DNA of 22,278 nucleotides from Cyanobacteria bacterium UBA11370 (GTDB lineage Bacteria; Cyanobacteriota; Cyanobacteriia; Cyanobacteriales; Coleofasciculaceae), in NCBI GenBank assembly GCA_003486645.1, contig DNGI01000157.1:16502-38779 (forward strand). Reading direction: 5' to 3'. Below the pieces are notes generated by a model. It searched no databases and was not told where the DNA came from. It worked only from the letters and a program-made list of their open reading frames with translations. A program made the translations under genes and the position numbers. Within the stretch, counting starts at the first letter, position 1. Each line of letters starts with the position of its first letter. Below are positions 1 to 18,318 of this stretch, one piece after another.

Positions 1-1300
1 TAACAACTGGAGATATTTCATTTTGAATATTATCGAGTGCTGCATTTAAAGTATTACCACTGAAAAGATTCACTCGCTTGACAACAACAGGTTCATCATT
101 CCATTTCTGCGGTAAAGTACGCGAAATTGGATGTGCACCAACAAGTCCCACTGCACCGTAGGTATAGGTTAACAACAGGTGATTTTCTAGTGCAGTTGCT
201 TCTTCTATCGAACTAACACCAATGAGAATTCTGCCGATAATTGGATCGATCACAATTTCTCGATCTTTCAGTGGCGGTTGTATTCCAGTTTCCCAAGCAC
301 AAAGATTTTCGCCGCGAATTGTCCACTCTTTCCAGTCTGGTGAATCAGTTTTAGTAAATTCAGGTTCAGGTAAATTTAGTTGTAACCCTACTTCAGAAAT
401 ATCGAGATAATTAATGTTAAAACTATTGCGATCATAAGTATTGATCGCCACGTATTTTTTTGGTCTTCCAGCTTCTGAATTTGTCGTTAATCGTGCTGTC
501 GGAATGGGGCTTGGTGTTTCGTCGAGTTGGGTAATGACAGGCGGATCTTTATCTGGATCGAATTGATAGGTATTAAACAATCGAATAGGTTCTGCTAAAG
601 GATGAACATAAAGTCGAACGATATGGGTTGCTTCATCTGGTTCTACTGTTCCTGTTGTTTTAACTTCTAGAATTGGCTTCGTAAATTTCACTCGATAGTC
701 TTTTAAGCGCCAGAGAAAAATGGCTAAATTGGGTAAGTTATACCGAATATTTCCCAACGCAGGCGGCTTCAAGTCGGCAATATGAGAAAATGGATCGAAA
801 GGAGTATTTAATAAACTCAGCATTGCCGGATCTCGCAGCGTTACTGTTCCGCCTCGGATGGGGGTAAATCGCGTCGCTGAGGCATAAGGTGGATTACCAC
901 CAATATCGGGGCGTTGATGGTTTAAATGCTGATTCCACACTAAATTCTCGCGCAATTCTACAGCATGAATTCCCCATTGAGTGAGGTTATAAGTCAGGCG
1001 TTCAATACTAGCTAAAGTTCCCTTGCGACGGCGTAAAGCGATGGTATCGGCAACATCGGCACGCAATGTCCAAGGATCGCCTTTGAGATGGCTAGTTCCT
1101 AATAAATCGCCGATATAAGGAATTACCCAATCGTCGCAGGTTTCAATAAATAGATCGTCATAGAGTGACTCGATATTTTCATGGATGGCATCAAAGATAT
1201 ATTGGATAATCGCCAAATAGTTTTTCAGTTGATCGGGTGGATGTTGTTCTTCATCTTTGACGCGGTAAATTTCAGGTAATCGATCATATAGTGGTTTCAT
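1..1300 (-). CDS. eCIS baseplate tail protein, P2-gpI-like (partial, runs off left edge)
   Basis: An open frame begins at ATG 1300 on the minus strand and stays open for 433 codons to the window edge, so the C-terminus is missing. The N-terminus starts MKPLYDRLPEIYRVKDEE and continues with a helical stretch (about residues 25-65, containing IPYIGDLLGTSHLKGDPW). This matches the phage-tail-protein domain found at the start of P2 gpI-like and eCIS Cis12-type baseplate proteins: an LPxxYR opening, then a helical segment ending in a G-D/W-L-G-like turn. The rest, to residue 433, is beta-rich with no motif I recognise. It follows the two baseplate-J genes with a 27-bp gap filled by heptamer repeats, and no clear Shine-Dalgarno is seen. 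Expected role: outer baseplate wedge or fibre attachment. The assignment rests on the N-terminus and on context. Confidence 0.72.
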   Translation of the reverse strand, partial: MKPLYDRLPEIYRVKDEEQHPPDQLKNYLAIIQYIFDAIHENIESLYDDLFIETCDDWVIPYIGDLLGTSHLKGDPWTLRADVADTIALRRRKGTLASIERLTYNLTQWGIHAVELRENLVWNQHLNHQRPDIGGNPPYASATRFTPIRGGTVTLRDPAMLSLLNTPFDPFSHIADLKPPALGNIRYNLPNLAIFLWRLKDYRVKFTKPILEVKTTGTVEPDEATHIVRLYVHPLAEPIRLFNTYQFDPDKDPPVITQLDETPSPIPTARLTTNSEAGRPKKYVAINTYDRNSFNINYLDISEVGLQLNLPEPEFTKTDSPDWKEWTIRGENLCAWETGIQPPLKDREIVIDPIIGRILIGVSSIEEATALENHLLLTYTYGAVGLVGAHPISRTLPQKWNDEPVVVKRVNLFSGNTLNAALDNIQNEISPVV

Positions 1301-1327
1301 AATTGGTAATAGCTAATGGCTAATGGG
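1301..1327. repeat. Heptamer array filling the gap between two eCIS genes
   Basis: Three tandem heptamers, TAATAGC, TAATGGC and TAATGGG (1307-1327), occupy nearly the whole gap between the stop codon at 1328-1330 and the ATG at 1300. They belong to the same family as the arrays at 9201, 15517 and 19693. The usual ribosome-binding position of the downstream gene is taken up by repeat. Confidence 0.8.
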
Positions 1328-4051
1328 TTAACAGGGTTTTGATGATGGGGGAGAAATGGGAGAAAGTTTCAAATGTTCGGTATATAAAGTGAGAATTTGT
1401 TGGGTGGTGCAGGCGATATTGGAGTTGGATTGAATGAGTCCGGGAGGATCGAGTTGTACGGGATCGTTGGCTTCACCAAGGGAGATGAAACCTGTTACTT
1501 CAACCCACAACACGCCTTCTACGTTTTGAATAATTCCAGCAATTCGCGTAGCATATTCTTTTTGTCCGAAGCGACGGTTTTTGAGTGAAAATAGCCCATT
1601 ATTTTCGCCTGTAACACCCAAAGCAGCTTGAATGAATTTTGAAACTAATTCTTGACGATAGGTGGGTGCAAAAGCCACATTTGCGGCGATATAGATATAT
1701 TTATGCTTGCCTTCTTTCACCTTGATCGGGAACCGTTGGGAACCTCGACAACGATCAAAGTTTGACAGAATTTTTTCGACTTCGGCAAACTCTTGAGTTC
1801 GTCCAGTTTCCATCAATACCGTTATTACTACACTGGGAATGTTATCGACTAATTCCCACGTTGCTAAGGCTTTAGAAACTCCAGGAATAGCTAACGTTTC
1901 ACTTTCAAAATCTTGCAAACTAACGAGGCGATCGAGACTTTGAATTTTTCCAGGTGCAGCTTCTTTAGCATTTTCACCACTTTCGGGTTCTGCACCACCT
2001 GTGACAATACCAGGAAGATAAATTTTATCGAGTTTATCTAGTCTACCACTCGCTTGAACTTTTGTTTCGGGTTTAAGCTGTCCGTAAGCACCAATTCCGG
2101 TGCGATATTTAGCGACGATATTTTTAATTCCCGATGGCAATTGTTTACCTGTTTTTCCATTCCCAAATTGTACCCAACTGTCGCCATTTGCATCTTCACG
2201 AACGATATAAATTTCTTCATCGGGTTTGTGGTTGAATAAGGTGGGGACTCGTTTCCAGAGGCGATTATTTACATAAATTTGCAATTCTGGAATTTCGGGA
2301 GGAGTTTCTCCAGGTAGATTGTGATAGGTTAAGGGTGATTTAGGTAGTTTGAAAGTTTGAAATTTCTGCCGACTATCGCCATTTCCTAAAACGGCTTCTT
2401 TTTCTGTTTTACCTTGATTTGCTTCGACTAAGTTGCCGTAAACTGTAACTTTAGGTTTATCCAGTAAAGGAAAGTCTTCAATGGTAAACTTTTCGGAGAA
2501 ATTGGGTAAGTAGAGAGGACGTAATTTTACGCTGTTATCCGGCTTGATCTGATTTTTATCGATGCTAACAGTCAGAGTTTCATGAGTGCCATCAGTTTTG
2601 ACAAAGCTTAAAGAACGTTGGTTAAGTTTTGCGTAAGTTTGGGAATTCCCGAAATAAAAGAGTTCGTTCGGGATTTTAGTATCTTTTTTTTGATAGACAC
2701 TCTGTAATTGGAAGCTTTTGCAAATAACTTCTAAAAACTCGATAGTGCGAATATCGGTGTAAATTTGATCGCCTGAAGAAATGGGTTGTTCGATCTCAAT
2801 CAGAGTCGTTCCGGCTGTAACTGCCCCCCAAGTCAGAGATGTTTTAGAAACTTTGTTTATCTGTCTTGCAAAGAAATATTCGCTGCCAATACCTGTTGAT
2901 TTTTTACTCAGTTGTAATTGAATGATTAAAGTAGATCCGACAGATAAATCGTCAACTTCTGTATCAAGGGGCATAACGCTAAAGGGAAGTGAAGGAACAT
3001 CTGCCAGGTTTGAAAAAAGAACGCTTGTTATGTTTACAAAAGGAACATCTGCTAGATTTGAAAGCTGATCGAATTGAAGATTGCTAATTTTTAATAGATT
3101 TTGACTGGCGATGGCTAGATTGCTAAATTTTCCTAATTCTTGACTTGAACTTTTAGGAACAGCTAAATCCCTAGGCAATAAACCTATTTGCCGATTAAAT
3201 GGGACAATTTTTGTAGTAGAATTATTCCCTTCAACTGTGACAAATTTAGGTGGACTGTTGTGACCAAAGTGTCTAAAACTCCGTCCTAACTTGTAAGCAT
3301 AAATGTTATCGCCCACAAATCCAGATTGCCAACTGCCTTCGATATGAATTTCTGTGCGATCAAAGTTTTGTTTAATCTCCTTAATTACAACAATTTGGCG
3401 TTTGGTATCAGATTGGGATGGGGTAACAGCTAAAAAGAGGCGATCGCCTTTATTTAACTCGATATTATTTTGCTTTAAAATTGATGTCTCGATTGAAAAA
3501 GAACTCGTTCCAGTATTGATATGAGGAAGCCGATAAGGACGATACAGATTGAATTGACTCAATTCTGGATAAGCAATAGTTTCCCCAGTTGTCTCAAATT
3601 CAACAGGTTGTGCAATATCTGCCAACTGTGCTTTGAGAGGAAATCCAGCGGGAATAGTAATAGCTTTTTCACCTTTGAATGTAAATGCAAAAGTTGCCTT
3701 TCCTCCCACTCCCGGCGAAAGTTGATAGCCTAATAGTCGGACTAAATCGGCAATGCTTTCGCGCCATTGCGCTGTACGTAAAAAAGCTTCATTAGCATAG
3801 AGTTCTTGATAAAATGTCAGAATATCTCCCAAAACGGCTACGCCTTCGAGTAAGGCAATTCCTGGATCGTCAGGTTCTCGATGCGTCCAATTTTTTAGCA
3901 CTTCATTTTCATTTAATTTCCGGAATATTGCTTCCAGAAAATCGGCATAGGTTCCGATGCGATAGTTGATGTGAGACAGTCCTGATCGATTGTAAATCTT
4001 CTTGGGAAATTCAAAGGGTTCAACACAATCGTTACGGCAGTTATTTGTCAT
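1328..4051 (-). CDS. eCIS baseplate wedge protein, gp6/baseplate-J-like (paralogue 2)
   Basis: This 907-aa protein should form part of the baseplate wedge ring around the spike. The N-terminal block at about residues 30-110 has the phage-tail-like putative baseplate assembly signature: HREPDDPGIALLEGVAVLGD, then TFYQELYANEAFLRTAQWR. A second block near residue 628 reads VQFGNGKTGKQLPSG, followed by a beta-rich region containing DFESETLAIPGVSKA. Both blocks recur in the neighbouring 810-aa protein, so the two are paralogues that diverged strongly. The region around residues 300-360 looks inserted and contains two copies of SNLADVP. The start overlaps the upstream gene as ATGA (4048-4051), with GGAGG six bases before the ATG, so it is translationally coupled. 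The C-terminus is rich in Pro and Ser and comes from a G-rich stretch. Length exceeds the common gp6 size. Confidence 0.87.
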   Translation of the reverse strand: MTNNCRNDCVEPFEFPKKIYNRSGLSHINYRIGTYADFLEAIFRKLNENEVLKNWTHREPDDPGIALLEGVAVLGDILTFYQELYANEAFLRTAQWRESIADLVRLLGYQLSPGVGGKATFAFTFKGEKAITIPAGFPLKAQLADIAQPVEFETTGETIAYPELSQFNLYRPYRLPHINTGTSSFSIETSILKQNNIELNKGDRLFLAVTPSQSDTKRQIVVIKEIKQNFDRTEIHIEGSWQSGFVGDNIYAYKLGRSFRHFGHNSPPKFVTVEGNNSTTKIVPFNRQIGLLPRDLAVPKSSSQELGKFSNLAIASQNLLKISNLQFDQLSNLADVPFVNITSVLFSNLADVPSLPFSVMPLDTEVDDLSVGSTLIIQLQLSKKSTGIGSEYFFARQINKVSKTSLTWGAVTAGTTLIEIEQPISSGDQIYTDIRTIEFLEVICKSFQLQSVYQKKDTKIPNELFYFGNSQTYAKLNQRSLSFVKTDGTHETLTVSIDKNQIKPDNSVKLRPLYLPNFSEKFTIEDFPLLDKPKVTVYGNLVEANQGKTEKEAVLGNGDSRQKFQTFKLPKSPLTYHNLPGETPPEIPELQIYVNNRLWKRVPTLFNHKPDEEIYIVREDANGDSWVQFGNGKTGKQLPSGIKNIVAKYRTGIGAYGQLKPETKVQASGRLDKLDKIYLPGIVTGGAEPESGENAKEAAPGKIQSLDRLVSLQDFESETLAIPGVSKALATWELVDNIPSVVITVLMETGRTQEFAEVEKILSNFDRCRGSQRFPIKVKEGKHKYIYIAANVAFAPTYRQELVSKFIQAALGVTGENNGLFSLKNRRFGQKEYATRIAGIIQNVEGVLWVEVTGFISLGEANDPVQLDPPGLIQSNSNIACTTQQILTLYTEHLKLSPISPPSSKPC
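2994..3063 (-). repeat. Imperfect 22-bp direct repeat, 48-bp period, inside the baseplate-J gene
   Basis: The plus-strand words GGAACATCTGCCAGGTTTGA (2994-3013) and GGAACATCTGCTAGATTTGA (3042-3061) differ at two positions and lie exactly 48 bp apart. The duplication is therefore in frame by 16 codons. In the protein it yields two SNLADVP segments. This looks like a short tandem duplication within a surface loop. Confidence 0.75.
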
Positions 4052-6480
4052 TGTCTTCCTCCCTGTATGTCAAATTTGATGAAGCCACCTTCGAGGTGAT
4101 CGCGATCATTTTTAACTTGTATAATTTCGTTACCCCGAACTTCAATAACATCCTTTGTTCCTGGCGTAACTTCATTCCAACGTTTTAACTTCACATCTAT
4201 TACGTGTGCGACTCCTTGAATTGCCTGTACAGCGCCAATAATTTGACTGACTCTAAGTGCTTGTCCAAACGTCCAATGATCGGGATGAAAGAAAGCCATT
4301 CGTCCGTCAGAAGTATAGCCTTCTGAAAATTCCTCTTCTAAAATAAAGCGGATATCTTCAATCCAATAATCAGGATGAATGCAAAGAGAAACTAGAATAT
4401 CTAACGGCACAAATCGGGGCGATCGAATCTCTAAATCTTCTCCAATTAAACGCACGGCTTCCAGATGACGAGCCACTTTTTCTCGCACTTCATCTGTTAA
4501 AATAGAAGTACCCACTGGATCGATCGCAATCTGCACGGTTCGCCAACTTCCTGTCCAGCGATATTGGGCAAATGCCCTAGAAACTTCTGGCAATTCAGCA
4601 GCGCGATTTTCGTAATCTTTGAGAGTAATTGCCCTCAATTGACGGTAGCGATAAGCTTGAGGAACGCGGCGCAAAATTTCAGCGACAGGTTCAGGTTCTC
4701 GTCCGTTTGTAACGTCAAAAGGATTCCAACAAGAACTTATTTGAGGAAAGGCATTACTATCGAAATGAATTAAACTATCTGCACCAACATTGCCATCTAA
4801 TCCTCGACCAATTTGATACGTGCAATGTACAGTCGCACCGTCAGGTAACTGCTTCCCATTAACACCATTGCCAAAACGAATTAAACTTCGTCCCAATTCA
4901 TCGGTTTCTACAATAAAGCGATCGCCTCGTTCATCGCTGTCGTCACTATGAATTAAGTCAGTTACTTCCTCCCATAAATCCTCTCCAACCTTAACTTCTA
5001 AAGTCGATTTTGGCGGCACTTCACCACCGGGAGGCGTATCGAGATAGGCTAAAGGAATTGCCGGAAGTCTACAAATTGTTTCCTGTTTTTTTGTTCTTTC
5101 GTAAAATAGAGGTGATTCTGGCATTAAGGGGAAAAATTCATCTAACTCTTGGAAACTTATAGAAATTGAACGACCGTGATAAACTTGAACTAAATTTCCG
5201 TGAAATAAAGAAATATTTATTACCGGGATTGTCGTATCGCCACTAGGACAATTGACTATAAAACAGTAATTCCGTTGTAACTTGTCCTTTTCCTCCCAAT
5301 GAACTCGCACAAACCACTCACCTGTTACTGGATCTTGCTTCTTTTCTGTTTTTTTAGAAATAAGTTTAAGTAGTTGTCTTCGAGTGGGATCTCGCCCTCC
5401 TATTTCTCCCGTTAGAGGATTGAGATGTTCTTGAATCAGCAAATGAGTAATCGTTCCATTACTCATTAATACTCTCACCGTTTCTGCGGCAATTTCTCCG
5501 GGTTCGGAAAGTTTTAAATCGGCACTCGTACTCCCCGCCGCCAATGCGGGAATTGCACCACTCCAACTGTACAAACCCATCTCATTCAATAATGGGTGAA
5601 CTGCTTGTTTTTGGCGCGTGATAAAGACAACAGAATCAGAATCTAAAATATCATTCCCTGACCAAACAACAAAACCTTTTGCTAAATTATGGGAGTTACT
5701 AACTTGCAGTCCTAACCAAGTATTTGCTTGATTTCCTTGATGAATGTGATAGTCCATTAAACGGGCGTGACGTGCCAAAGAAACGCGCTTTCGGGCAGTT
5801 GTTAAATATGCCTCATTCATCACGCGATCTTGATAGTCACTCAACTCATCAGCAGCGGCACTAAATAGGGATAACAATACTTGATCTAAATCCGCTTCAC
5901 TTGTCGGTTCCCAACCGGGAACGCGGTTCATCATCCAAGCCAATAAAGTATGGCGAAATGAGTCGTAATCTTTGGCTAAATAATCAATGGGAGGATTTGG
6001 TTTCGGTTTCGGAGGTGTATCCCAATCCAGCGCACAATTATTGAAACATCCTGGACGAAATTTGAATTGAATCTCGCTAAAAATAGGATCGATAAAAATT
6101 GGATCTATCTGGTCATTGTCATCAACAACGCTTAAAGTATAGGTAGAATAGTCCCCGATTGGCCGAACAGTTAAATGTAAAACCTTGTCATCTTCTGGAT
6201 CTGCTTCAACAGCAAAAACTTGCACCTCACCCGTCAGCGAACCGCCTAAAACTCGATAACCACCTGTAATGGTAAAAATCTTCTTAGCACGAGCAGGATT
6301 TGCTGCGATTTTGCTAATAATATTATTAAGTTGGTTGTTTTTATAAAAATAAACACTCAAAATCGCTTCCGTTGGATGTACCGAAGGAGACAAAGATACC
6401 AACACTAACCGGATACCGTTAAATTCACCTAAATTATTTGCCCGTTCGTTAAGCGCTTCTTGATTCTTAATCGCCATCAT
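4048..6480 (-). CDS. eCIS baseplate wedge protein, gp6/baseplate-J-like (paralogue 1)
   Basis: An 810-aa baseplate protein of the putative baseplate assembly family in phage-tail-like clusters (Cis11/Pvc11-like). After about 160 residues of N-terminal beta-rich sequence comes the signature helical block: DYLAKDYDSFRHTLLAWMM (about 164-183), then DLDQVLLSLFSAAADELSDY and EAYLTTARKRVSLARHARL. A second block near residue 533 reads IRFGNGVNGKQLPDG, followed by QLRAITLKDYENRAAELPEV. These match the same blocks in the next gene. It starts nine bases after the gp25-like gene and ends in an ATGA overlap with the next gene. Role: wedge of the baseplate, joining gp25 and sheath initiation to the outer ring. 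No membrane segment is seen, so nothing here shows membrane anchoring directly. Confidence 0.9.
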   Translation of the reverse strand: MMAIKNQEALNERANNLGEFNGIRLVLVSLSPSVHPTEAILSVYFYKNNQLNNIISKIAANPARAKKIFTITGGYRVLGGSLTGEVQVFAVEADPEDDKVLHLTVRPIGDYSTYTLSVVDDNDQIDPIFIDPIFSEIQFKFRPGCFNNCALDWDTPPKPKPNPPIDYLAKDYDSFRHTLLAWMMNRVPGWEPTSEADLDQVLLSLFSAAADELSDYQDRVMNEAYLTTARKRVSLARHARLMDYHIHQGNQANTWLGLQVSNSHNLAKGFVVWSGNDILDSDSVVFITRQKQAVHPLLNEMGLYSWSGAIPALAAGSTSADLKLSEPGEIAAETVRVLMSNGTITHLLIQEHLNPLTGEIGGRDPTRRQLLKLISKKTEKKQDPVTGEWFVRVHWEEKDKLQRNYCFIVNCPSGDTTIPVINISLFHGNLVQVYHGRSISISFQELDEFFPLMPESPLFYERTKKQETICRLPAIPLAYLDTPPGGEVPPKSTLEVKVGEDLWEEVTDLIHSDDSDERGDRFIVETDELGRSLIRFGNGVNGKQLPDGATVHCTYQIGRGLDGNVGADSLIHFDSNAFPQISSCWNPFDVTNGREPEPVAEILRRVPQAYRYRQLRAITLKDYENRAAELPEVSRAFAQYRWTGSWRTVQIAIDPVGTSILTDEVREKVARHLEAVRLIGEDLEIRSPRFVPLDILVSLCIHPDYWIEDIRFILEEEFSEGYTSDGRMAFFHPDHWTFGQALRVSQIIGAVQAIQGVAHVIDVKLKRWNEVTPGTKDVIEVRGNEIIQVKNDRDHLEGGFIKFDIQGGRQ

Positions 6481-6489: not shown

Positions 6490-6867
6490 CTACACTTCAC
6501 TATTCCGTTGAAATTTCATAATTCGGCTATCTTTTGTTCCGGCAATTCGATATTGGATTTGAACATTCAGGGTTGAATTCTCTACGGTTACTTGTAAATC
6601 TTCTAAAGTAACTCGATGTCCCAACCAGCGAGAAATGGCTTGAGTTACTCTCGCTTTAGTTACACCTGCTGTAGTTTCACTGGCATTTTCAAATATTAAT
6701 CGTCGCACTCCTCCACCAAATTCTGGTAAGAATACTCGTTCTCCTGGGTTAGTTAGAATTAATTGAATTAACTCATCTCGAATGTGCGATTCTAGGGACG
6801 GAACTTGTGCTGTTTGTCCGTTGGAATTGATGCGGAATGGAAATAATAAATGTTTGTTGTTAGCCAT
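6490..6867 (-). CDS. eCIS baseplate wedge protein, gp25-like (Cis9/Pvc9)
   Basis: A 125-aa protein with the gp25/GPW family fold. The family core is plain: DELIQLILTNPGERVFLPEF followed by GGGVRRLIFE. It contains the conserved E-x-R element (NPGER) that forms the wedge core in T4 gp25, TssE and Pvc9. Length fits the family. In T4, gp25 nucleates sheath polymerisation at the baseplate. It sits directly upstream of the two baseplate-J genes, which is the standard wedge-module order. A 56-bp repeat-bearing gap separates it from the PAAR-like gene upstream. Confidence 0.94.
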   Translation of the reverse strand: MANNKHLLFPFRINSNGQTAQVPSLESHIRDELIQLILTNPGERVFLPEFGGGVRRLIFENASETTAGVTKARVTQAISRWLGHRVTLEDLQVTVENSTLNVQIQYRIAGTKDSRIMKFQRNSEV

Positions 6868-6923: not shown

Positions 6924-7256
6924 TTATAATGCCGATGCTTTCATCTGACTATTGGCAATAATGGCAACTCCTTGAATTGCATTTTCGGCGTTGTAACATT
7001 TGCCGATACTATTTTTTAAAAGAGGTGCTCTGCTGTTAGCAGAAGTTTGGGTTGATCCGGCAGACCATTCGATGCGGATGCAGGGAGAAGGTTTACCGTT
7101 GGGAAGGGTAAAGGGACAACCGATAACCGTATGAATATCCGATGCTAAAAGTATGGGTGAACCGTTGGCAAAAACTTTAGTATTTGATGTTAATAAGTTT
7201 GCCCGTCCACCGTGGGGACATAGAATTGTACTGGTCGTAGTTAAGTAATTTGCCAT
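6924..7256 (-). CDS. PAAR-like spike-tip protein (Cis10-like)
   Basis: A 110-aa protein starting MANYLTTTSTILCPHGGRAN, with further Cys residues in IGCPFTLPNGKPSPC and GKCYNAE. The CPHGG and GCPF motifs and small size match PAAR-like tip proteins, which form a sharp cone stabilised by a metal bound to Cys/His and cap the VgrG or gp5 spike. The four Cys plus one His (C13, H15, C47, C58 and C88 by my count) could form the site. It follows the gp5-like gene with a TAAATG junction (stop directly abutting start), so coupling is likely. The sequence is less canonical than type VI PAAR proteins. Gene order supports the call strongly. Confidence 0.82.
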   Translation of the reverse strand: MANYLTTTSTILCPHGGRANLLTSNTKVFANGSPILLASDIHTVIGCPFTLPNGKPSPCIRIEWSAGSTQTSANSRAPLLKNSIGKCYNAENAIQGVAIIANSQMKASAL

Positions 7257-9950: not shown

Positions 9951-10223
9951 TTATTTCCTCCCAATTCTGGCAGTAATGGCACTCGTTATAACACGAGCAA
10001 TTTCTGTTCTGAGTTCGTTGGCATCTCCCCTTCGCTGCAATCTTAATCTCCCCAAATTTAGATCGCCTAACTGAATCTTTTGTCCCGGCTGAACTAAACC
10101 CTGTTGCGCTAAATTGTTCATAACTTCTTGACCCAATCCCTCAATTGCTGAACGCGCAATTTGGGGTGGTATGCCTCGACTGCGAAGGTTAATGTGGTTA
10201 AGATGAATCTCGTTTTTATCCAT
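9951..10223 (-). CDS. Small conserved-context eCIS protein of unknown function
   Basis: I do not recognise this 90-aa protein. It opens with EIHLNHINLRSRGIPPQIA, has a helical middle (GLGQEVMNNLAQQGLVQPGQ), then a beta-like stretch (KIQLGDLNLGRLRLQ) and a basic helical tail ending ARIGRK. It lies between the ATPase (8-bp overlap) and the Pvc7-like gene (3-bp gap), so it is surely translated with them. Pvc6/Afp6, a small protein next to Pvc7 in other clusters, is a positional analogue, but I see no sequence motif proving equivalence. The tight packing argues for an assembly or structural role in the tube-baseplate module. Confidence 0.78.
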   Translation of the reverse strand: MDKNEIHLNHINLRSRGIPPQIARSAIEGLGQEVMNNLAQQGLVQPGQKIQLGDLNLGRLRLQRRGDANELRTEIARVITSAITARIGRK

Positions 10224-12417: not shown

Positions 12418-13601
12418 GGAACTATCACCTCTGGGCTGTTTTGCGCCTGTTGACCATTTACTCGCAGAATAACTCGATAAGTTCCTGATGGTATGGTATC
12501 TGCGATTGCCACTCGTAATTGGGTTTGGGCGGGAGGGGCAGGTAAAATATCCTCAAACACATCAAAAATTCTCACCGTTTTGCCAGTTTGATAAAGCGCG
12601 ACAAAAACGTCATCGCTTTTTTTTCCTAACAGAAAACCCTCTAAATTAAGATTACCGAGAGAGAATTCGACACTAGTGAGAATAGGTAACAAGTTTGCTA
12701 CTAATAAGTTACTTGATCGCGTCTTATTATTGGGTAAGCTTTGCACAACACAAACAGGATGACTCCCCGCAGAAATAGCACTGCCATCCCTAATATTGCC
12801 ATTCAACTCGCACTTCAAACTATCCGGCGACTGGGCAATAATGGGCAATTCTACCGAACCCAACCGAACCGTTAAATTAGATAGGGCTAAATTACTGCCC
12901 TTAATTGTTAAGATAGATGTTTCTAAAGGAAGTGGAGGAACAATTTTAGTCGGGAAAATTCCCTCAATTTTCGGTTCCATCCCAGGTAAAACAGGAATTT
13001 TAATCCCCTCCGCACCAATAACTGTATCATTGACATAATCGACTCCTACTAACAGCGAATAGGAAGCAGGTTCGCCCGTTGCAATCATTACCGGGCGGAC
13101 TTCAAAACCAATGGAACAGCGATATTTATCCTCTGATCCCTGCATCAATTTAGAAATTAATTCCGAAGAAGTCGGATCGAAAGTAATCTTTAACGCTTCG
13201 GGATTGGGATTGAGTGCCTTTAACAAATCTGATGGTAAATTACCTAATGGTAAGAATGACAATTCTTGAAGAACTCGCATCCCTTCCCCTAGGTATTCGT
13301 GTGCCTCATAACTATCACTATCTCCCCCTGTGTCAAAGGCAGTTAGCAAATACTTAAGAACCAGCCAAAGAGGAGTTGGTTGCCCCGGATCTAGGGATCT
13401 ATTCCTCAGATTAGAATCTAGCTGAATCTCGTATAGAAATAGATTTAATCGGGGATTTGTTATGCCTTCACCTATTTCTTCAGGTTTGCCAATTCTAACA
13501 TTATTAACTGTCCCCGCTAAACGCGCCAACAGGCGATCGCGAAGCAGTTGACTAACTGCCCCAATTGCTTTTCCAGTATCTGCAAGTGCCACGATCGCCA
13601 A
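12414..13601 (-). CDS. Tail terminator/cap protein, Pvc16-like (DUF4255) with IPT-like domains
   Basis: A 395-aa protein. The N-terminal about 200 residues match DUF4255/Pvc16_N: an opening helix ALADTGKAIGAVSQLLRDRL, then RLNLFLYEIQLDSNLRNRS, LWLVLKYLLTAFDTGGDSD and EALKITFDPTSSELISKLMQ. This domain caps the distal end of tube and sheath. The rest resembles two immunoglobulin-like IPT/TIG units, about 210-300 (starting KIEGIFPTKI, with TIKGSNLALSNLTVRLGSV) and about 305-395. IPT extensions occur in some Pvc16 relatives and could reach outside the particle; a role in contact with membrane or partner is inference. It starts eight bases after the disordered protein gene and overlaps the ATPase start by four bases. 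Confidence 0.92.
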   Translation of the reverse strand: MAIVALADTGKAIGAVSQLLRDRLLARLAGTVNNVRIGKPEEIGEGITNPRLNLFLYEIQLDSNLRNRSLDPGQPTPLWLVLKYLLTAFDTGGDSDSYEAHEYLGEGMRVLQELSFLPLGNLPSDLLKALNPNPEALKITFDPTSSELISKLMQGSEDKYRCSIGFEVRPVMIATGEPASYSLLVGVDYVNDTVIGAEGIKIPVLPGMEPKIEGIFPTKIVPPLPLETSILTIKGSNLALSNLTVRLGSVELPIIAQSPDSLKCELNGNIRDGSAISAGSHPVCVVQSLPNNKTRSSNLLVANLLPILTSVEFSLGNLNLEGFLLGKKSDDVFVALYQTGKTVRIFDVFEDILPAPPAQTQLRVAIADTIPSGTYRVILRVNGQQAQNSPEVIVP

Positions 13602-13609: not shown

Positions 13610-14614
13610 CTAACGAATATAATGTCGGTTGAGTCGAGAAGTTTGTCTGGCTGGTTTGATATCTGGCTTGGATTTTACAGGTGGTAATAGCGGCTTTTGA
13701 CTCTCTGATTGAGGTGCTTCAACGGTTAAACTAATCGTCCCGATGGAAAGCGTGAAATTCTGACTTTCTTGATAGTTTGAATTAGGTGATGGGGGATGGT
13801 AAATAGGGAATTTATTTTTTTGATTGTCCTCTAGTGTTCCTACTGTAAAATCATAATATTCTTGAAATTGCTGTTCTGAATTATCAAGAAATGAACTATT
13901 CTCTTTTGAATTTTGAATTCTCTTAGCGTAGCGGGGCGTAGCCCATTTTGAATTTTCCTCTCCTGTTTCCGCTACCCATTCTCGAACGGCTTGTAAATTT
14001 ACCTGATGGGTTGAGAATAGATCGGGTTCTGGGAATTGTACTTGCTCATCTTGAGATCTAAATTCAGGCAATTCACCTGCGGGAATAGTTTGCGATCGCC
14101 CTATTCTCTTGACAAGATTCCTACTCTTTTGGGGATTCTCTTCTATTTCTAAATTTCTTGTAACCCTAGCCGATTTAGATTCAAGAGTATCATCATTCAA
14201 TTCTTGTGGTATTTCTGATAATCTTTCTCTATTATGCTCGACAAAATCAAGTTTTTCTTTATCCATAGATGGACTCAATTGAGAGACATCATTTTCTAGA
14301 GGATAAAGCAGATTGTTGTTGGGTGGAATCGCCGCTGGATCTACCAAATTGGGTGAAAACAGCCTGGGAACTGATGAAGAGTTAGAGTCCCTATTCATCG
14401 TTTCTTGCTTGTAGTTTTCTCCATCCTCTACTGTTGCTATCTTCACACCATCATTACCAGGTATAACGTTCTCGATTGATAAGTTTGTCGTCAGAAATTT
14501 ATCGCTCTCTACAGCACTAAAGTCCTGATTATAAATTGAATTGCTAGAAGATACTTTATCTGTTTCTAGGGCAATTCCAGTTTGTTGAATGAGTCGAGAA
14601 AAATAGCCACTCAT
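13610..14614 (-). CDS. Disordered eCIS accessory protein with conserved ends
   Basis: The start is placed at ATG 14614. There it overlaps the preceding stop as ATGA, has GGGAGGT about ten bases upstream, and yields the N-terminus MSGYFSRLIQQTGIAL; an upstream ATG at 14665 would add 17 residues and lacks this arrangement. The protein is then 334 aa, low-complexity, rich in Ser, Asn, Glu and Pro, with no globular pattern across residues 20-270. The C-terminus is more ordered: FTLSIGTISLTVEAPQ, then a Pro/Lys stretch and RLNRHYIR. From memory, a short FFxRLxxRTG-like start plus an IGxIxVxAP end recurs in an accessory protein of many eCIS loci, usually next to the Pvc16 gene as here. Function unknown to me. 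It could be a long tether whose ends bind two CIS parts. Confidence 0.8.
   Translation of the reverse strand: MSGYFSRLIQQTGIALETDKVSSSNSIYNQDFSAVESDKFLTTNLSIENVIPGNDGVKIATVEDGENYKQETMNRDSNSSSVPRLFSPNLVDPAAIPPNNNLLYPLENDVSQLSPSMDKEKLDFVEHNRERLSEIPQELNDDTLESKSARVTRNLEIEENPQKSRNLVKRIGRSQTIPAGELPEFRSQDEQVQFPEPDLFSTHQVNLQAVREWVAETGEENSKWATPRYAKRIQNSKENSSFLDNSEQQFQEYYDFTVGTLEDNQKNKFPIYHPPSPNSNYQESQNFTLSIGTISLTVEAPQSESQKPLLPPVKSKPDIKPARQTSRLNRHYIR
13904..13956. repeat. Translated interspersed repeat within the disordered-protein gene
   Basis: The plus strand carries TAGCGTAGCGGGGCGTAGCCC (13924-13944), a GC-rich near-palindrome flanked by TTTTGAATT units on both sides. I recall this GCGTAGCGGGGCGTAGCCC word as an interspersed repeat in filamentous cyanobacterial genomes. 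Here it is read in frame as WATPRYAKRI in a disordered region, so its insertion was tolerated. Confidence 0.65.
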
Positions 14615-15471
14615 TGATAATTTACCTCCCGTTGGATTAGATCTAAATAACGCGATCGCCGCCAAGGAGGAATGGCAAAAATATCCGATTCTCTCCAGTG
14701 ATAATGAGAAGCCAAGCGGTGAACAGTTATCAGTAATTGTTGCTGCGCCCTATACAATTGCTGAAGCGCCCAATCACCGAGATCGAAGTCATGTAGATTT
14801 TCAGTACCACAGTAGGGACAATTCACCTGAAGACTAAAATTCACGAGAGGATCGATCTCTTCCATAACTTGATTCAGCGTTTGCATCCAATGCTTCTCCT
14901 GGCTAAAAATTTGCTGAAAACTAGATATTTGTTCCACAGGAAGCAACGTTTGCACCATAGCTAGAGTTGCCGAATCTTCATCAGGAAACTGCTGTTCTAG
15001 CCAGGATTTTTGGTCGATTCCTGTAGGTTTTCGCAGCGAAAACTTTTTAGTTTCGAGGGCAATTTCAGTTGGGTGATTCTCAGCTTGCTGCTGTAGGAGA
15101 ATGAGTTCTAACAGAAGAATCGTAATTTCCATCTGTCGCTGACATTCGGAGTTATAGCAGTTGAGATTAAATTCGATTTGTGAACGATTGGGTAAAGTAG
15201 CTACGGTTAACAGATATTCAGTTCGCTTGCCAATTTCCAAATTCCAGAAAAAGCTAGAATCGATCTTTATTCCCTCTCGGTTTCCCATACAACATGCTAA
15301 TATCTGGATCTCCAAATCAGGGCGGTGCGTTTGCTGAAAATCAATTTCTAAATCTTCCTCAAAGTATCCAAATGGACGGATAGATAATTCCCTCACAACC
15401 AATTTTTCTGTTGTGGCTTCGGAAATTTCTGAAGAAGATATTACATCGCTAGTTCTATCTGATATCAACAT
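14611..15471 (-). CDS. T4-gp26-like baseplate hub protein with Cys motifs (probable)
   Basis: A 286-aa protein. The C-terminal third contains NCPYCGTENLHDFDLGDWAL, then YRAQQQLLITVHRLASHYHW, DIFAIPPWRRSRYLDLIQRE. The ending (LAxxYxWxxxxIxxLPxxRRxxYLxLI) is the pattern I associate with the T4 gp26/gp51-type baseplate family present in eCIS clusters. CPYC near residue 220, plus NCYNSEC near residue 126, could form a Zn-binding knuckle; Cys-Cys at about residue 58 adds candidates. The CPYC may equally be a vestigial redox-like pair. It sits between the tube and the disordered protein; its stop overlaps the next ATG. No Shine-Dalgarno is evident before ATG 15471, which follows a repeat-rich 102-bp gap. 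Confidence 0.72.
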   Translation of the reverse strand: MLISDRTSDVISSSEISEATTEKLVVRELSIRPFGYFEEDLEIDFQQTHRPDLEIQILACCMGNREGIKIDSSFFWNLEIGKRTEYLLTVATLPNRSQIEFNLNCYNSECQRQMEITILLLELILLQQQAENHPTEIALETKKFSLRKPTGIDQKSWLEQQFPDEDSATLAMVQTLLPVEQISSFQQIFSQEKHWMQTLNQVMEEIDPLVNFSLQVNCPYCGTENLHDFDLGDWALQQLYRAQQQLLITVHRLASHYHWRESDIFAIPPWRRSRYLDLIQREVNYQ

Positions 15472-15516
15472 ATAAACGGGGAACGGATAACAGAGGATGG
15501 AAAAAAAGGTTTATTC

Positions 15517-15579
15517 GCCATTAGCCATTAGCAATTAGCCATTAGCAATTAGCCATTAGCCATTACCTATTCCCTATTC
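15517..15579. repeat. Nine tandem heptamers reaching into the tube gene stop codon
   Basis: Units from 15517: GCCATTA, GCCATTA, GCAATTA, GCCATTA, GCAATTA, GCCATTA, GCCATTA, CCTATTC, CCTATTC. The last unit covers 15573-15579 and contains the tube gene stop (TAG on the minus strand, 15574-15576). The array fills about half of the 102-bp gap to the gp26-like gene. Confidence 0.93.
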
Positions 15580-16098
15580 CGGTTCAGTAAACGAAGGTTC
15601 TGTTGGTTCCGTGACATCATAATCTCTTTCCCAACCTTCATGCTGAAGCTGAATACTTTGAATTGCGATCGCATTAGCACTCGCATCGAGTTCAGGTAAA
15701 GCTGTAAATTCAGACACCCAGCAGCGATAAACTTTGTAGGATATCGCCACTTGTCCCGCCTCATTCATCATTTCAATAATAATGTCCTTGCGAAAATCTT
15801 TAAGCGAAACTTCCGCACCCAAACCCGAACCCAAATTCCAAATCTTATTCGCCCACTGTTCAAAATCTCTATCGTGAGTTACACCGCGTTCTAACATAAT
15901 GGCTTCGTACTTACTTTGTCCCGGCGATCGCCGCACCGTACTCGGATCGCCTCCCTCCCGATGTTCTACCACTTCTGTCGTCCGTTTTAGCGCCCCAACT
16001 TTACTAATTCCTGCCACATATCTACCATCCCATTTAACCCGGAATTTATAGTTTTTATACGGATCGAATCGCTGGGCATTGACGCTAAATTTAGCCAT
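15574..16098 (-). CDS. Inner tube protein, gp19/Hcp-like (Cis1/Pvc1-type)
   Basis: A 174-aa protein of the T4-gp19-like tail tube family. The start MAKFSVNAQRFDPYKNYKFR, then VKWDGRYVAGISKVGALKR and VVEHREGGDPSTVRRSPGQS, followed by KYEAIMLERGVTHDRDFEQW, is the diagnostic pattern. Hexameric rings of this protein stack to form the rigid tube driven out on contraction. A strong AAAGGAG lies seven bases before the ATG. It is the only tube gene in the window, whereas PVC/Afp loci usually have two (Pvc1 and Pvc5). The C-terminus TEPTEPSFTEPE ends where the heptamer array starts. Confidence 0.96.
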   Translation of the reverse strand: MAKFSVNAQRFDPYKNYKFRVKWDGRYVAGISKVGALKRTTEVVEHREGGDPSTVRRSPGQSKYEAIMLERGVTHDRDFEQWANKIWNLGSGLGAEVSLKDFRKDIIIEMMNEAGQVAISYKVYRCWVSEFTALPELDASANAIAIQSIQLQHEGWERDYDVTEPTEPSFTEPE

Positions 16099-16182
16099 AA
16101 TTTTACTCCTTTGCGCTCTCTTACTCTATTGCTTTTTTCCAGGAATGCGTAATCTTAACCTAAATCTGTCGATTAGTTTGTA

Positions 16183-16209: not shown

Positions 16210-16270
16210 AAATCTATGCTTTACCTATTCAAAAATCAAAAGTCAGGCATTCACCTCTTTCAATTTGTTC

Positions 16271-16305
16271 TCCGTTCCCCGTTCCCCATTCCCTATTCCC
16301 CATTT
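16271..16305. repeat. Five tandem heptamers abutting the sheath stop codon
   Basis: TCCGTTC, CCCGTTC, CCCATTC, CCTATTC and CCCATTT run from 16271 to 16305 on the plus strand. The last unit overlaps the sheath stop codon (TAA on the minus strand, 16304-16306). Together with the hairpin repeat it accounts for much of the 205-bp sheath-tube gap; the remainder of that gap shows only the tube gene's ribosome-binding site. Confidence 0.85.
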
Positions 16306-17851
16306 AAGTAACAATATTCCCCGCAATTTGCTGGAACTTAATAATGACAAATTCAGCAGGTTTAAGCGGGGCAAAACCGACAATAATATTAACAATACCC
16401 CGGTCAATATCATTCTGCGTCGTCGTTTCCTTATCGCACTTAACGAAATAAGCCTCCCTCGGTGACTTCCCTTGAAACGCACCTTGGCGAAACAAATTAT
16501 TCATAAATGCGCCAATATTCAAGCGAATTTGCGCCCACAAAGGCTCATCATTGGGTTCAAAAACCACCCATTGAGTACCGCGATACAGGCTTTCTTCAAG
16601 AAATAGCGTCAGTCGGCGAACAGGAATATATTTCCACTCCGAAGCAAGACGATCTGCCCCTTGAAGTGTGCGCGAACCCCAAACCACTCGCCCCACTCCG
16701 GGAAACGATCGCAAACAATTAATTCCCAACGGATTTAATTCACCGTTTTCTGCATCAGTTAGGCTAACACTTAATGCTGGTACACCATTTAAAGTTGCTT
16801 CCAATCCCGCAGGTGCTTTCCAAACACCTCGTTGTGCATCTGTACGCGCAAAAATTCCCGCAACTGCACCACAAGGCACAAAAGTTTCAATCTGATTGTC
16901 TCGTAAAAGATTAGCTTGCCTGAGACGCGGAAAGAAAATCGCTGCATTCTTACTAGTTGTTCCTACACCTGTGCCGATCCCTGTTTTTGCAGCATCCTTA
17001 TTCGTCCAATCAGAGGGCGGATCGATTAATAGCATCGCCCGACGTTCATCGCAGTAACTCGCAGCAGATGTAATTAAACCTGACTCAATATCACCTTCGA
17101 GAACGTGAGGAGGAATGCACAATAAATTAAAGAGATCGGTTTTTTTCAGAGCATACAAACCTTCCTTATTATTTTCTTTGCCAAATCCAGTAAAGTCTAA
17201 TTCTGTGAGCGGGTTTCCATTAGTTCCACCACCCGTTGCCGGAATCGGAGTATTAACTGGAGTAACACTAGGGCGAACATTGGGGAAATCAGCTATTTTG
17301 TCTACCCGAACAAGCGCAGAGGTTTGTTCTAGTACCTTGGGTAAATATCGGGAATTGGCTTCGTTAATCGAAACGTTGAGAAATTTTTCTGTTGCACCAT
17401 TTGCATCAAAAATTGTCAGATTGAAAAGGCTGATGTCAGGAAAATCCTCATCTTTATCCTTAGTTTCGTGATCTACCGCAGCTTTGAGATTGTTTCCCCA
17501 CTCACCCTCATTAGCAGCAACTAGGTGAAGCAAATCATTGGGCGCTGTGGCTCCCGTTGGTAAATCAAGGCGAGCGGGGGTAGCACCATTATGCAAGCGC
17601 ACGATAATTGCCTGACTTCCCCCATTAAGGTAGAAATCGCGCACGGCATAACTCATGCTGCTTTCCACCCACAATCCACCGAAAATTCGCTCGTAATCGC
17701 CGTAGCTATTAATAGTAATTGGATCGTTAACAGATCCGCGCCAAGCACGTCCGATAAATGCCGTAATCGAAGTAGCAACCCCCGTAATAGTACGAACGCC
17801 ACTGGGAATTTCTTCAATATAAACGCCGGGATAAGTAGGAGTGATGGGCAT
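16304..17851 (-). CDS. Contractile sheath protein (Cis2-like)
   Basis: A 515-aa phage-type tail sheath protein. The N-terminus TYPGVYIEEIPSGVRTITGV, then TSITAFIGRAWRGSVNDPI and SYGDYERIFGG, is the hallmark of the sheath family. The C-terminal domain contains GVGRVVWGSRTLQGADRLAS, WKYIPVRRLTLFLEESLYRG and TQWVVFEPNDEPLWAQIR, and ends FAPLKPAEFVIIKFQQIAG. The terminal arms mediate the sheath mesh that stores contraction energy. It is the single sheath gene visible here; PVC has three. GAGG lies eight bases before the ATG. The 205-bp downstream gap with a hairpin may let sheath and tube mRNA segments differ in stability; that is inference. Confidence 0.97.
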   Translation of the reverse strand: MPITPTYPGVYIEEIPSGVRTITGVATSITAFIGRAWRGSVNDPITINSYGDYERIFGGLWVESSMSYAVRDFYLNGGSQAIIVRLHNGATPARLDLPTGATAPNDLLHLVAANEGEWGNNLKAAVDHETKDKDEDFPDISLFNLTIFDANGATEKFLNVSINEANSRYLPKVLEQTSALVRVDKIADFPNVRPSVTPVNTPIPATGGGTNGNPLTELDFTGFGKENNKEGLYALKKTDLFNLLCIPPHVLEGDIESGLITSAASYCDERRAMLLIDPPSDWTNKDAAKTGIGTGVGTTSKNAAIFFPRLRQANLLRDNQIETFVPCGAVAGIFARTDAQRGVWKAPAGLEATLNGVPALSVSLTDAENGELNPLGINCLRSFPGVGRVVWGSRTLQGADRLASEWKYIPVRRLTLFLEESLYRGTQWVVFEPNDEPLWAQIRLNIGAFMNNLFRQGAFQGKSPREAYFVKCDKETTTQNDIDRGIVNIIVGFAPLKPAEFVIIKFQQIAGNIVT

Positions 17852-17901
17852 AATTCATTCCTCTGATTCTATTCCTGATGATTGATTTCTACCGACTGGA
17901 A

Positions 17902-18318
17902 TTAGGGAGTTGCATCTCGTCCGACGAGAATTTCGATCGCCGCATCTTTGTTAGTAGTACCTGCTGCATAATCATTTTTGAACTCGATAACTTTCGGAGC
18001 AATGCCAAATACAGAAACTCCTCCTTTCCCTAGATAAAGATGGAAGGCTTGAGCGAGCTTAATCCTCTCTGAAGTTGGAAAATTATTAGCTCCCCCATCA
18101 TTAACTACATAGGTTAGCTTTTCGTCAACTAAACTTGATTTAATCAGCAAGAAGTTCACCTGTCCTGCACCTCCAGGTTGAACTGCAACGTCTAGCGTGT
18201 CACCAGGTTTTACTGTTACCTCAATTTTGTCGTAAGCTTCAACCGATAGGGGTTGGGAAATGAGGGCTTGAGGTCCACCAACGACCTGGACGTTCAATGC
18301 TAAATTGATAGTTGCCAT
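17902..18318 (-). CDS. Leading gene of the eCIS cluster, unknown beta-rich protein
   Basis: I do not recognise this 138-aa protein. It starts MATINLALNVQVVGGPQAL and is beta-rich throughout, with IEVTVKPGDTLDVAVQPGG, QVNFLLIKSSLVDEKLTYVV and a C-terminal EILVGRDATP. No signal peptide, membrane segment or Cys is seen. It is the first gene of the cluster, 50 bp ahead of the sheath gene on the same strand. Its compact beta-sandwich look and position suggest a structural or decorating part of the particle made in quantity with the sheath. It is not a second tube: the tube family motifs are absent. No good Shine-Dalgarno precedes ATG 18318. Confidence 0.8.
   Translation of the reverse strand: MATINLALNVQVVGGPQALISQPLSVEAYDKIEVTVKPGDTLDVAVQPGGAGQVNFLLIKSSLVDEKLTYVVNDGGANNFPTSERIKLAQAFHLYLGKGGVSVFGIAPKVIEFKNDYAAGTTNKDAAIEILVGRDATP

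What the first reader, a model, noticed from the sequence alone, without database searches (positions are those of the whole stretch)
1..18318. Compact cyanobacterial eCIS cluster with the cap and ATPase placed early
Sheath, tube, cap, ATPase, hub, spike, tip and wedge genes lie on one strand in one run. Unlike PVC/Afp, where the ATPase and cap come near the end (15, 16), here the order is lead gene, sheath, tube, gp26-like, disordered protein, cap, ATPase, hub, spike, wedge. No lysis, capsid or type VI membrane genes are seen. Cyanobacterial systems are known to anchor to thylakoids, but no anchor can be identified from this sequence.
Basis: partly seen in the sequence, partly recalled or inferred. 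Interest (0 to 1): 0.75.

Follow-up and report, generated by a model that had tools for sequence, protein, structure and literature searches.

The report
Ordinary-order cyanobacterial contractile injection cluster
A cyanobacterium carries genes for a phage-tail-like injection machine in the gene order that is usual for its type, and the 'disordered protein' in it turns out to belong to an unnamed protein family kept at the same place in related clusters of many phyla.

Summary
Seventeen genes on the minus strand (window 2-18318) encode a contractile injection system: sheath, tube, cap, AAA ATPase, hub, spike, tip and wedge. The window cuts the cluster. It continues 7.5 kb to the left with the rest of a wedge gene, a DUF6519/beta-helix gene and a DUF4157 (eCIS_core) gene. 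No capsid or terminase was found.

'Cap and ATPase early' is the rule for this type. Sheath, tube, gp26-like, cap and ATPase were all found in 65 of 83 related loci, in the window's order in 64. In a thylakoid-type (tCIS) locus both genes lie even earlier, before the sheath. The window is not tCIS-type: its sheath is only distantly related to Anabaena's and no tCIS-type membrane helix was found.

The new part is the 'disordered protein'. It belongs to a family with no Pfam, PHROG or PADLOC name. Both ends are conserved, the disordered middle is not, and lengths run from 194 to 1116 aa. It lies between the gp26-like gene and the cap in 62 of 64 loci with all three. Some related systems lack a tape-measure gene, which makes this an untested candidate for length control or assembly.

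The parts
17902..18318 (-). lead gene, 138 aa, predicted all-beta protein of unknown role
   Evidence: No Pfam or PHROG. Profile hits in 14 of 83 related loci, just before the sheath gene in 12, on the opposite strand and further off in L069 and L071. AF2 pLDDT 82; Foldseek: two PDB matches at E <= 0.001, both virus coat jelly rolls, query-normalised TM-score at most 0.50 in the 50 rows shown.
16304..17851 (-). sheath
   Evidence: PF04984 5.5e-11, PF17482 1.2e-10; PDB 8bky 7.7e-79
15574..16098 (-). inner tube
   Evidence: PF06841 1.1e-44, TIGR02241 6.3e-43
14611..15471 (-). gp26-like baseplate hub protein
   Evidence: PF12322 below cut-off; PHROG 150 baseplate hub 4.4e-6; two relatives 1.3e-17 and 5.9e-11
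13610..14614 (-). two-ended disordered protein, 334 aa, start overlaps the gp26-like stop (ATGA)
   Evidence: Family; no Pfam, PHROG or PADLOC match; one NCBIfam match far below its cut-off (14.6 against 242 bits)
12414..13601 (-). cap / tail terminator (Pvc16_N, TIG)
   Evidence: PF14065 7.5e-25
10216..12417 (-). AAA ATPase (Cis15-like, probable cargo loader)
   Evidence: PF00004 1.7e-27. The best NCBIfam and PADLOC matches are the anti-phage ATPase IteA/IetA (102 bits against a cut-off of 510; 6.9e-31): shared AAA domain, no defence partner was looked for.
9951..10223 (-). small protein after the ATPase, 90 aa
   Evidence: Similar small ORF after the ATPase in 47 of 61 loci, found with a loose motif; AF2 pLDDT 83; Foldseek PDB 0 hits
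9285..9947 (-). tube-initiator-like protein (CIS_tube, Cis7-like)
   Evidence: No Pfam or PHROG for the window copy; two relatives match PF19266 just below its cut-off
8921..9193 (-). LysM / gp53-like baseplate protein
   Evidence: PHROG 7145 baseplate wedge 3.5e-4; a relative weakly matches LysM
7785..8906 (-). hub (gp27/GPD-like), stop followed directly by the spike ATG
   Evidence: No Pfam for itself; its profile hits the fused hub-spike protein of L109 (262 bits), which matches Phage_base_V and, below cut-off, Phage_GPD
7257..7784 (-). spike (gp5/VgrG OB domain)
   Evidence: PF04717 9.7e-25
6924..7256 (-). spike tip (DUF4280, PAAR-like)
   Evidence: PF14107 2.5e-4, below cut-off
6490..6867 (-). 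sheath initiator / wedge gp25
   Evidence: PF04965 1.7e-15
4048..6480 (-). baseplate wedge J1 (Cis11-like)
   Evidence: PF04865 4.5e-9, TIGR02243 4.6e-54; PDB 9gtp 3e-7
1328..4051 (-). baseplate wedge J2 (second TIGR02243 protein)
   Evidence: TIGR02243 3.8e-50; PHROG 219 3.4e-19
2..1300 (-). tail-protein-I-like wedge gene, 5' part; interrupted by a 184-N run just left of the window
   Evidence: TIGR02242 4.4e-4, below cut-off; one long gene in 3 of 3 cyanobacterial relatives (733, 1536, 740 aa), one of which just reaches the Tail_P2_I cut-off

Best explanation
The run is the structural gene cluster of a contractile injection system of a widespread class-II-like type, scattered over many phyla and rare in cyanobacteria, in the gene order usual for that type. 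Shown: the components, their order, and the continuation left of the window. Inferred: the baseplate (hub, spike, tip, gp25, two J-like proteins, a tail-I-like protein) nucleates the tube and sheath; the cap ends the tail; the AAA ATPase loads DUF4157-containing cargo, as Pvc15 loads cargo in PVC; the DUF6519/beta-helix protein next to the wedge genes is the likely target-binding fibre; contraction drives the tube into the target. The disordered protein beside the gp26-like and cap genes is most likely an assembly factor that links two parts of the particle by its conserved ends (untested). No tCIS-type anchor is encoded in what could be read, so the particle is probably assembled free in the cytoplasm, to be released by lysis or to act in the producing cell.
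For: Families. Order: five genes found in 65 of 83 loci, same order in 64 of those, plus 2 of 2. Rarity in cyanobacteria: sheath at E <= 1e-60 in 6 of 386 genomes, own genome included. Three of three cyanobacterial relatives end J1, J2, tail-I-like gene, DUF6519-like gene; the window's contig ends the same way and then has a 325-aa gene and DUF4157. ATPase-dependent loading in PVC: PMC11495950 (abstract and passages). DUF4157 as CIS effector domain: PMC8894136 (section 5) and PMC8213781 (passages).
Against: The dbeCIS subtype is unresolved: the sheath scores 268 bits against the S. coelicolor IId sheath and 262 against the haloarchaeal IIa sheath (lineages). Exceptions to the order: L083 has cap and ATPase before the sheath; Streptomyces L051 and Kitasatospora L058 have no detected cap or ATPase although the DNA goes on; L048 and L087 carry hub-side genes on the other strand. 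Neither expression nor particle formation is shown.
Confidence: 0.85

Rival explanations
1. It is a thylakoid-anchored CIS like that of Anabaena, with an anchor not yet recognised.
For: Cyanobacterial host. The wedge gene where an anchor might lie is interrupted by 184 N. The DUF6519 protein has four hydrophobic stretches. In one of three cyanobacterial relatives (G199) the long tail-I-like protein has one strongly hydrophobic stretch, residues 773-791, mean 2.35.
Against: Sheath far from All3325 (144 bits against 268 for Streptomyces); tCIS-type sheaths split off in the tree, and no All3325-type match reaches E <= 1e-60 in this genome. Hub and spike are separate here and fused in tCIS-type L109. 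No hydrophobic segment in either readable part of the tail-I-like gene or in J2. Hydrophobic stretches in DUF6519 proteins are common (median 1, range 0-10, none in 37, of 108 relatives of 1100 aa or more).
Confidence: 0.07
2. It works like the cytoplasmic CIS of Streptomyces: particles stay in the producing cell and fire there under stress, causing cell death.
For: The Streptomyces sheath is the best solved match, by a small margin. No tCIS-type anchor was found.
Against: No candidate for the CisA membrane protein in the window: no segment passes the hydropathy test in the 17 window proteins except one each in sheath and ATPase, which I take to be globular. The cluster has a beta-helix fibre candidate, while Streptomyces clusters are reported to lack a conventional fibre (PMC10066040, passages). 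A sheath closer to the Streptomyces one sits on another contig, C333 (354 bits).
Confidence: 0.3
3. It is a prophage or tailocin remnant.
For: The parts are of phage-tail descent.
Against: No capsid, portal or terminase among the 28 proteins from the contig given to Pfam. It has a CIS-type AAA ATPase, Pvc16_N cap and DUF4157 gene. Left of it lie transposase, PIN, Uma2 and Tn7-like genes.
Confidence: 0.02
4. The early cap and ATPase are a local rearrangement peculiar to this genome.
Against: Same order in 64 of 65 loci that have the five genes, from many phyla.
Confidence: 0.01

Closest known systems
Streptomyces coelicolor cytoplasmic CIS (CISSc, dbeCIS IId; PDB 8bky, 9gtp)
   Same: Best solved sheath match (7.7e-79); a 9gtp J-like chain is the only PDB match of J1 at E <= 0.001. 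No Afp14-type tape-measure gene reported there (PMC10066040, PMC12237407, passages); no named tape-measure family was hit here.
   Different: Two tube homologues and no conventional fibre are reported for Streptomyces; the window has one gp19-type tube gene and a beta-helix fibre candidate next to it. This genome's C333 sheath is closer to CISSc (354 bits).
Thylakoid-anchored CIS of Anabaena PCC 7120 (tCIS; PDB 7b5h)
   Same: Cyanobacterial hosts; sheath, tube, cap, ATPase, spike and gp25 present.
   Different: Distant sheath; fused hub-spike and ATPase-cap before the sheath in tCIS-type L109; no tCIS-type membrane helix seen in the window cluster.
Haloarchaeal CIS of Halogeometricum borinquense (clade IIa; PDB 9ezm)
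   Same: Sheath match almost as good (5e-77). Plug, tape-measure and crown homologues reported absent (PMC11566945, passages).
   Different: Membrane-bound in cryo-tomograms, with a six-helix membrane protein upstream in its clade (same paper); no such protein in the window.
Unnamed relatives in Chloroflexota, Pseudomonadota, Myxococcota, Actinomycetota, other cyanobacteria and others (L012-L091, L110-L112)
   Same: Order sheath, tube, gp26-like, disordered protein, cap, ATPase, in most also a small protein after the ATPase, then the hub side where the locus reaches it.
   Different: Most of the 11 wider loci read carry genes that look like DUF4157 effectors between the small protein and the tube initiator; the window has none there and its DUF4157 gene is at the far end. 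Five of 27 relatives are as compact as the window at this place.

Membership tests
Contractile injection system of the eCIS kind | Sheath plus gp19-type tube | tested here: met
   PF04984, PF17482, PF06841 above cut-off
Contractile injection system of the eCIS kind | CIS-type AAA ATPase and Pvc16_N cap | tested here: met
   PF00004 and PF14065 above cut-off
Contractile injection system of the eCIS kind | Associated DUF4157 (eCIS_core) protein | tested here: met
   C504:9012-10502, PF13699 1.1e-35, left of the window
Contractile injection system of the eCIS kind | No head genes | tested here: met
   None among 18 window and 10 left-flank proteins in Pfam; the other listed ORFs were not tested, and the contig ends at the window's right edge
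Contractile injection system of the eCIS kind | Particle assembles and contracts | not testable with these tools
   Needs microscopy
Thylakoid-anchored CIS (tCIS) | Sheath of the All3325 group | tested here: not met
Thylakoid-anchored CIS (tCIS) | Cis13 with C-terminal membrane helix | tested here: not met
   No segment of mean hydropathy 1.6 or more over 19 residues in either readable part of the tail-I-like gene; the 184 N between them are unread, and no Cis13 sequence was compared
Thylakoid-anchored CIS (tCIS) | Cis19 crown | not tested
   No Cis19 sequence was compared
Cytoplasmic CIS / dbeCIS subtype IId | Sheath clearly within the IId clade | tested here: inconclusive
   IId and IIa solved sheaths nearly tie (268 and 262 bits); dbeCIS models not available
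Cytoplasmic CIS / dbeCIS subtype IId | CisA-like membrane protein in the cluster | tested here: not met
   Hydropathy scan of 17 window proteins and four left-flank proteins, of which only the DUF6519 one has hydrophobic stretches; other contigs not searched for CisA
Prophage / tailocin | Capsid, portal or terminase genes | tested here: not met
   with the limits given above; lysis genes were not searched for by name

The most novel reading that the evidence does not exclude
The two-ended disordered protein is the length-setting or tethering component that replaces the tape-measure protein in this CIS type: its conserved ends bind two fixed parts of the growing tail (for instance baseplate hub and cap) and its variable middle sets or bridges the distance.
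Probability: 0.15. Interest if true: 0.8.

Novelty: new member of a known kind. Interest (0 to 1): 0.45.

Why it matters
The cluster itself is ordinary for its type, which corrects the idea of a special gene order, and shows that a cyanobacterial CIS need not be of the thylakoid-anchored lineage. The by-product matters more. A protein family with no name in Pfam, PHROGs or PADLOC has conserved ends and a free middle, and sits in a fixed place in related clusters of at least ten phyla by record title, one of them archaeal. How systems without a tape-measure gene make particles of one length is open in print: CISSc particles were all alike at 268 nm with the gene noted as absent (PMC12237407, passage). 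A survey of CIS core domains by Pfam enrichment (PMC8213781, passages) would not show a family without a Pfam model. The protein gives a concrete gene to delete or shorten.

Tried and rejected
Programmed frameshift between the gp26-like gene and the disordered ORF (as in phage tail chaperone pairs; recalled): the disordered ORF is in the -1 frame and overlaps, but it has its own ATG overlapping the stop (ATGA) after GGGAGG, and 45 of 59 relatives picked without any motif show the same overlap, so ordinary coupled translation explains it.

Simple extended ruler against CISSc: the S. tanashiensis protein (289 aa, L051) would span about 104 nm at 0.36 nm per residue (my figure) against a 268 nm particle. 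L051 is not shown to be the CISSc cluster, so this is no fair test.

Nonsense split of hub and spike: the hub stop is followed directly, in frame, by the spike ATG. Fourteen other loci also give hub and spike as separate ORFs, and only the two tCIS-type loci give one fused ORF, so no mutation is needed.

Small protein after the ATPase as the Cis6 spike plug: the model (pLDDT 83) gave no Foldseek PDB match; left open. Lead gene: only weak jelly-roll matches. DUF6519 protein as membrane anchor: hydrophobic stretches are common in its family. The disordered family in viral contigs: 14 pattern matches, 0 confirmed. Promoter- and terminator-like sites in 5000-22278 were at or below chance (37 against 33.8; 8 against 17.1), so they say nothing on a single transcript. 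Rfam: 0 matches in the window.

Biases in my own counts: the profile of the disordered family was built from rows of the same loci it was counted in. The first test of its ends (360, 397 and 175 of 400 for N-terminal, C-terminal and middle) used rows chosen by end motifs, so it leaned towards conserved ends; I repeated it without any motif and rely on that. Independent of both is the search of 386 genomes.
Full report
WHERE IT IS. The window is bases 16502-38779 of contig C504 (38,779 bases) of a 7.1 Mb assembly in 550 contigs. HIP1 octamers occur 16 times against 0.16 expected from base composition, which marks a cyanobacterium (HIP1 as a cyanobacterial mark is recalled). The best named relatives of the sheath are cyanobacterial too (Calothrix 80%, Microcoleus 76%, Nodosilinea 73%, best 120 of 8000 scored). 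The right end of the window is the end of the contig.

OBSERVATION. Seventeen genes lie on the minus strand between 18318 and 2, with gaps from -8 to +205 nt. Profile searches identify sheath, tube, cap, AAA ATPase, spike, gp25 and two J-like wedge proteins above curated cut-offs. Hub, tube-initiator-like and LysM-like proteins are identified mainly through relatives. The gp26-like protein and the DUF4280 tip are below Pfam cut-offs in the window copy. The disordered protein starts at 14614 (334 aa), overlapping the gp26-like stop codon as ATGA.

BEYOND THE WINDOW. To the left the cluster goes on: the rest of the tail-I-like gene after a 184-N run whose two flanks share a short stretch, a 1233-aa protein with DUF6519, a carboxypeptidase-regulatory-like domain and a beta-helix region, a 325-aa protein, and a 496-aa protein with eCIS_core (DUF4157) and a peptidoglycan-binding domain. 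Then follow a DDE transposase piece, a PIN domain, a Uma2 protein and a Tn7-like set. In 3 of 3 cyanobacterial relatives the tail-I-like gene is one long gene (733, 1536, 740 aa) followed by a DUF6519-like gene.

GENE ORDER. I fetched 80 loci from genome contigs by a sheath alignment (the best 80 of 580 confirmed) and three more from whole cyanobacterial genomes, and marked the genes with profiles built from them. Sheath, tube, gp26-like, cap and ATPase were all found in 65 of 83 loci; 64 of the 65 have the window's order on one strand. The exception is L083 (Burkholderiaceae), with cap and ATPase before the sheath. Of the 18 incomplete loci many stop at contig ends; L051 (Streptomyces) and L058 (Kitasatospora) are long enough and have the hub side straight after the disordered protein, with no cap or ATPase detected. 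Two more cyanobacterial loci (G024, G376) have the same order. In 27 loci with both ATPase and tube initiator, the latter lies after the ATPase in 26 and on the sheath's strand in 25 (L048 and L087 differ). The distance is 1.5-1.8 kb in five of them (L023, L031, L038, L060, L079), 3.0-8.8 kb in the other 20 on the sheath's strand, and 1.7 kb in the window. A tCIS-type locus, L109, reads ATPase, Pvc16_N cap, a 407-aa protein, sheath, two tubes, CIS_tube, fused hub-spike, PAAR, gp25, J. So cap and ATPase are early in both cyanobacterial types, as far as one tCIS-type locus shows. The PVC/Afp order was not tested here. That CIS clusters had already been sorted into six classes by composition and organisation is told in PMC8910223 (passage).

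LINEAGE. Solved relatives of the sheath include S. coelicolor 8bky 268 bits, H. borinquense 9ezm 262, PVC2 166, Afp3 162, AlgoCIS 147, Anabaena All3325 144. CISSc is lineage IId (PMC10066040, passages) and the H. borinquense cluster clade IIa (PMC11566945, passages), so the subtype stays open. In a quick tree of 87 sheaths the tCIS-type sheaths and this genome's C333 sheath branch off with support 96; the window lies among mixed phyla, and its exact place has open forks (the tCIS rows fill under a fifth of the columns and the C333 row is a long branch). Window-type sheaths (E <= 1e-60) occur in 6 of 386 cyanobacterial genomes, own included; All3325-type sheaths (E <= 1e-60, 188-residue query) in 3 of 386, not in this genome.

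ANCHOR. In Anabaena the anchor is a membrane helix at the end of Cis13 plus a Cis12 extension (PMC8894136, section 5 read in full). A hydropathy scan of the 17 window proteins found segments only in sheath and ATPase, which I take to be globular, and none in the readable second part of the tail-I-like gene. The DUF6519 protein has four segments, but 108 relatives of 1100 aa or more show 0-10 of them (median 1, none in 37), so I do not read them as membrane helices. Against this stands one relative of three, G199, whose 1536-aa tail-I-like protein has a stretch of mean 2.35 at 773-791.

THE DISORDERED PROTEIN. In related loci the ORF after the gp26-like gene begins with a motif like MSDFLTRLAARTLGxxxxVQPRxPSRFEP and ends with one like VxVTIGRIEVRA...LSLDDYLRQR. 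The window copy is a divergent member. In a first pass 70 of 82 loci had a gp26 hit and gave a candidate ORF; with the window that makes 71 rows, 62 of them closed, 57 of the closed with the C-terminal motif (not L052, L058, L071, L079, L081); lengths 194-1116 aa, median 294. Because that pass used end motifs, I repeated it with position only: of 69 loci (L012-L091 with gp26), 59 gave a closed ORF of 120 aa or more, 8 were cut by the contig end and 2 gave none. The start overlaps the gp26-like stop by the same register in 45 of 59; lengths run from 194 to 1116 aa, median 293. In 400 random pairs the real local score beat a shuffled partner for 352 N-terminal, 374 C-terminal and 198 middle segments, mean scores 33.6 against 16.5, 76.9 against 25.2, and 25.1 against 25.1: conserved ends, free middle. 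With profiles, 71 of 76 loci with gp26 have it (missing L044, L056, L071, L072, L081), and it lies between gp26-like and cap in 62 of 64 loci with all three (L080 and L083 differ). These profile counts are partly circular, as the profile came from the same loci. Independently, it was found in 7 of 386 cyanobacterial genomes: all six with the sheath, plus G167, where it sits beside a cap and an ATPase in two pieces, with no sheath in the 19 kb read. By record titles and tree labels, many of them of MAGs, the holders span at least Chloroflexota, Cyanobacteriota, Pseudomonadota, Thermodesulfobacteriota, Myxococcota, Bacteroidota, Nitrospirota, Actinomycetota, Verrucomicrobiota and Nitrososphaerota. 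It matches no Pfam family (0 of 10 members); the window copy matches no PHROG and no PADLOC model. A search of 5.8 billion proteins gave 17 relatives, the window's own protein among them by its contig length, none with a Pfam domain; the source-given names are 'hypothetical protein'. No confirmed viral relative. Literature searches for a disordered conserved CIS component (listings, with passages of two papers) showed nothing that describes it; this covers only the held open-access library.

WHAT IT MAY DO. Conserved ends joined by a free, length-variable middle suggest a tether or ruler. CISSc particles are all alike at 268 nm although no tape-measure gene is present (PMC12237407, passages), and a tape-measure homologue is also missing in H. 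borinquense. But CISSc is not shown to be of the window's type, the second CIS of this genome (C333, CISSc-like) shows no such protein on its contig, and I found no measured particle of the window's type. The ruler remains a hypothesis at 0.15; an assembly tether or chaperone without length control is likelier.

CARGO. In PVC the ATPase loads cargo by disordered signal peptides (PMC11495950, abstract and passages). In most of 11 relatives read, one or more genes with DUF4157-type openings (such as LLQRKCACGG) lie between the small protein after the ATPase and the tube initiator (recognised by eye, not by profile; the 11 were chosen among the wider ones). The window has none there; its DUF4157 gene is at the far end, and the genome holds seven DUF4157 matches on six contigs.

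VERDICT. An ordinary member of a widespread CIS type, correctly recognised, with a standard gene order wrongly thought unusual, and with an overlooked conserved component that deserves a test.

Noticed in passing
C504:38-5510 (L003), left of the window: A Tn7-like set: TnsA-TnsB fusion (907 aa), TnsC/TniB-like ATPase and a 530-aa TniQ that matches the PADLOC model TniQ_IB (4.4e-56), as in type I-B CRISPR-associated transposons (recalled); the contig ends there.
   Followed up: partly
C333 (L011):8996-13497: A second CIS locus in the same genome: Pvc16_N cap, sheath (354 bits to the Streptomyces sheath) and three gp19-like tube genes (two below the Pfam cut-off), followed by a ClpB gene.
   Followed up: partly
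C437 (L010):12502-13944: A third sheath-like protein, distant from CIS sheaths (best PDB match 7e-10), about 1.2 kb after a TnpB gene; probably phage-like.
   Followed up: no
window 9951-10223: Small protein after the ATPase; a similar ORF in 47 of 61 loci, in relatives opening with an INLHIERLVLDG-like strand that resembles the C-terminal IGRIEVRA motif of the disordered protein. A shared binding partner is conceivable, untested.
   Followed up: partly
window 20620-22191: Divergent histidine kinase with GAF domain upstream of the cluster; a kinase upstream of a GerE regulator is reported for some eCIS loci (PMC8213781, passage). The contig ends right after it.
   Followed up: no
C504:16250-16530: The N run is flanked by a shared stretch of about 22 bases, and the left flank holds a fold-back repeat (by eye): looks like a scaffolding artefact.
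   Followed up: partly
L066:13791-14846: In Komarekiella the disordered protein carries tandem GDWGLGT-like repeats that the close Nostoc copy (L068) lacks: a sign of how freely the middle changes.
   Followed up: no
whole genome G000: Seven DUF4157 (eCIS_core) matches on six contigs; six of the seven are not on C504, C333 or C437, where the sheath genes lie. Their surroundings were not read.
   Followed up: no
G167:C7:498000-517000 (L125): Disordered-protein, cap and split ATPase genes without a sheath gene in the 19 kb read: possibly a decaying CIS cluster.
   Followed up: no
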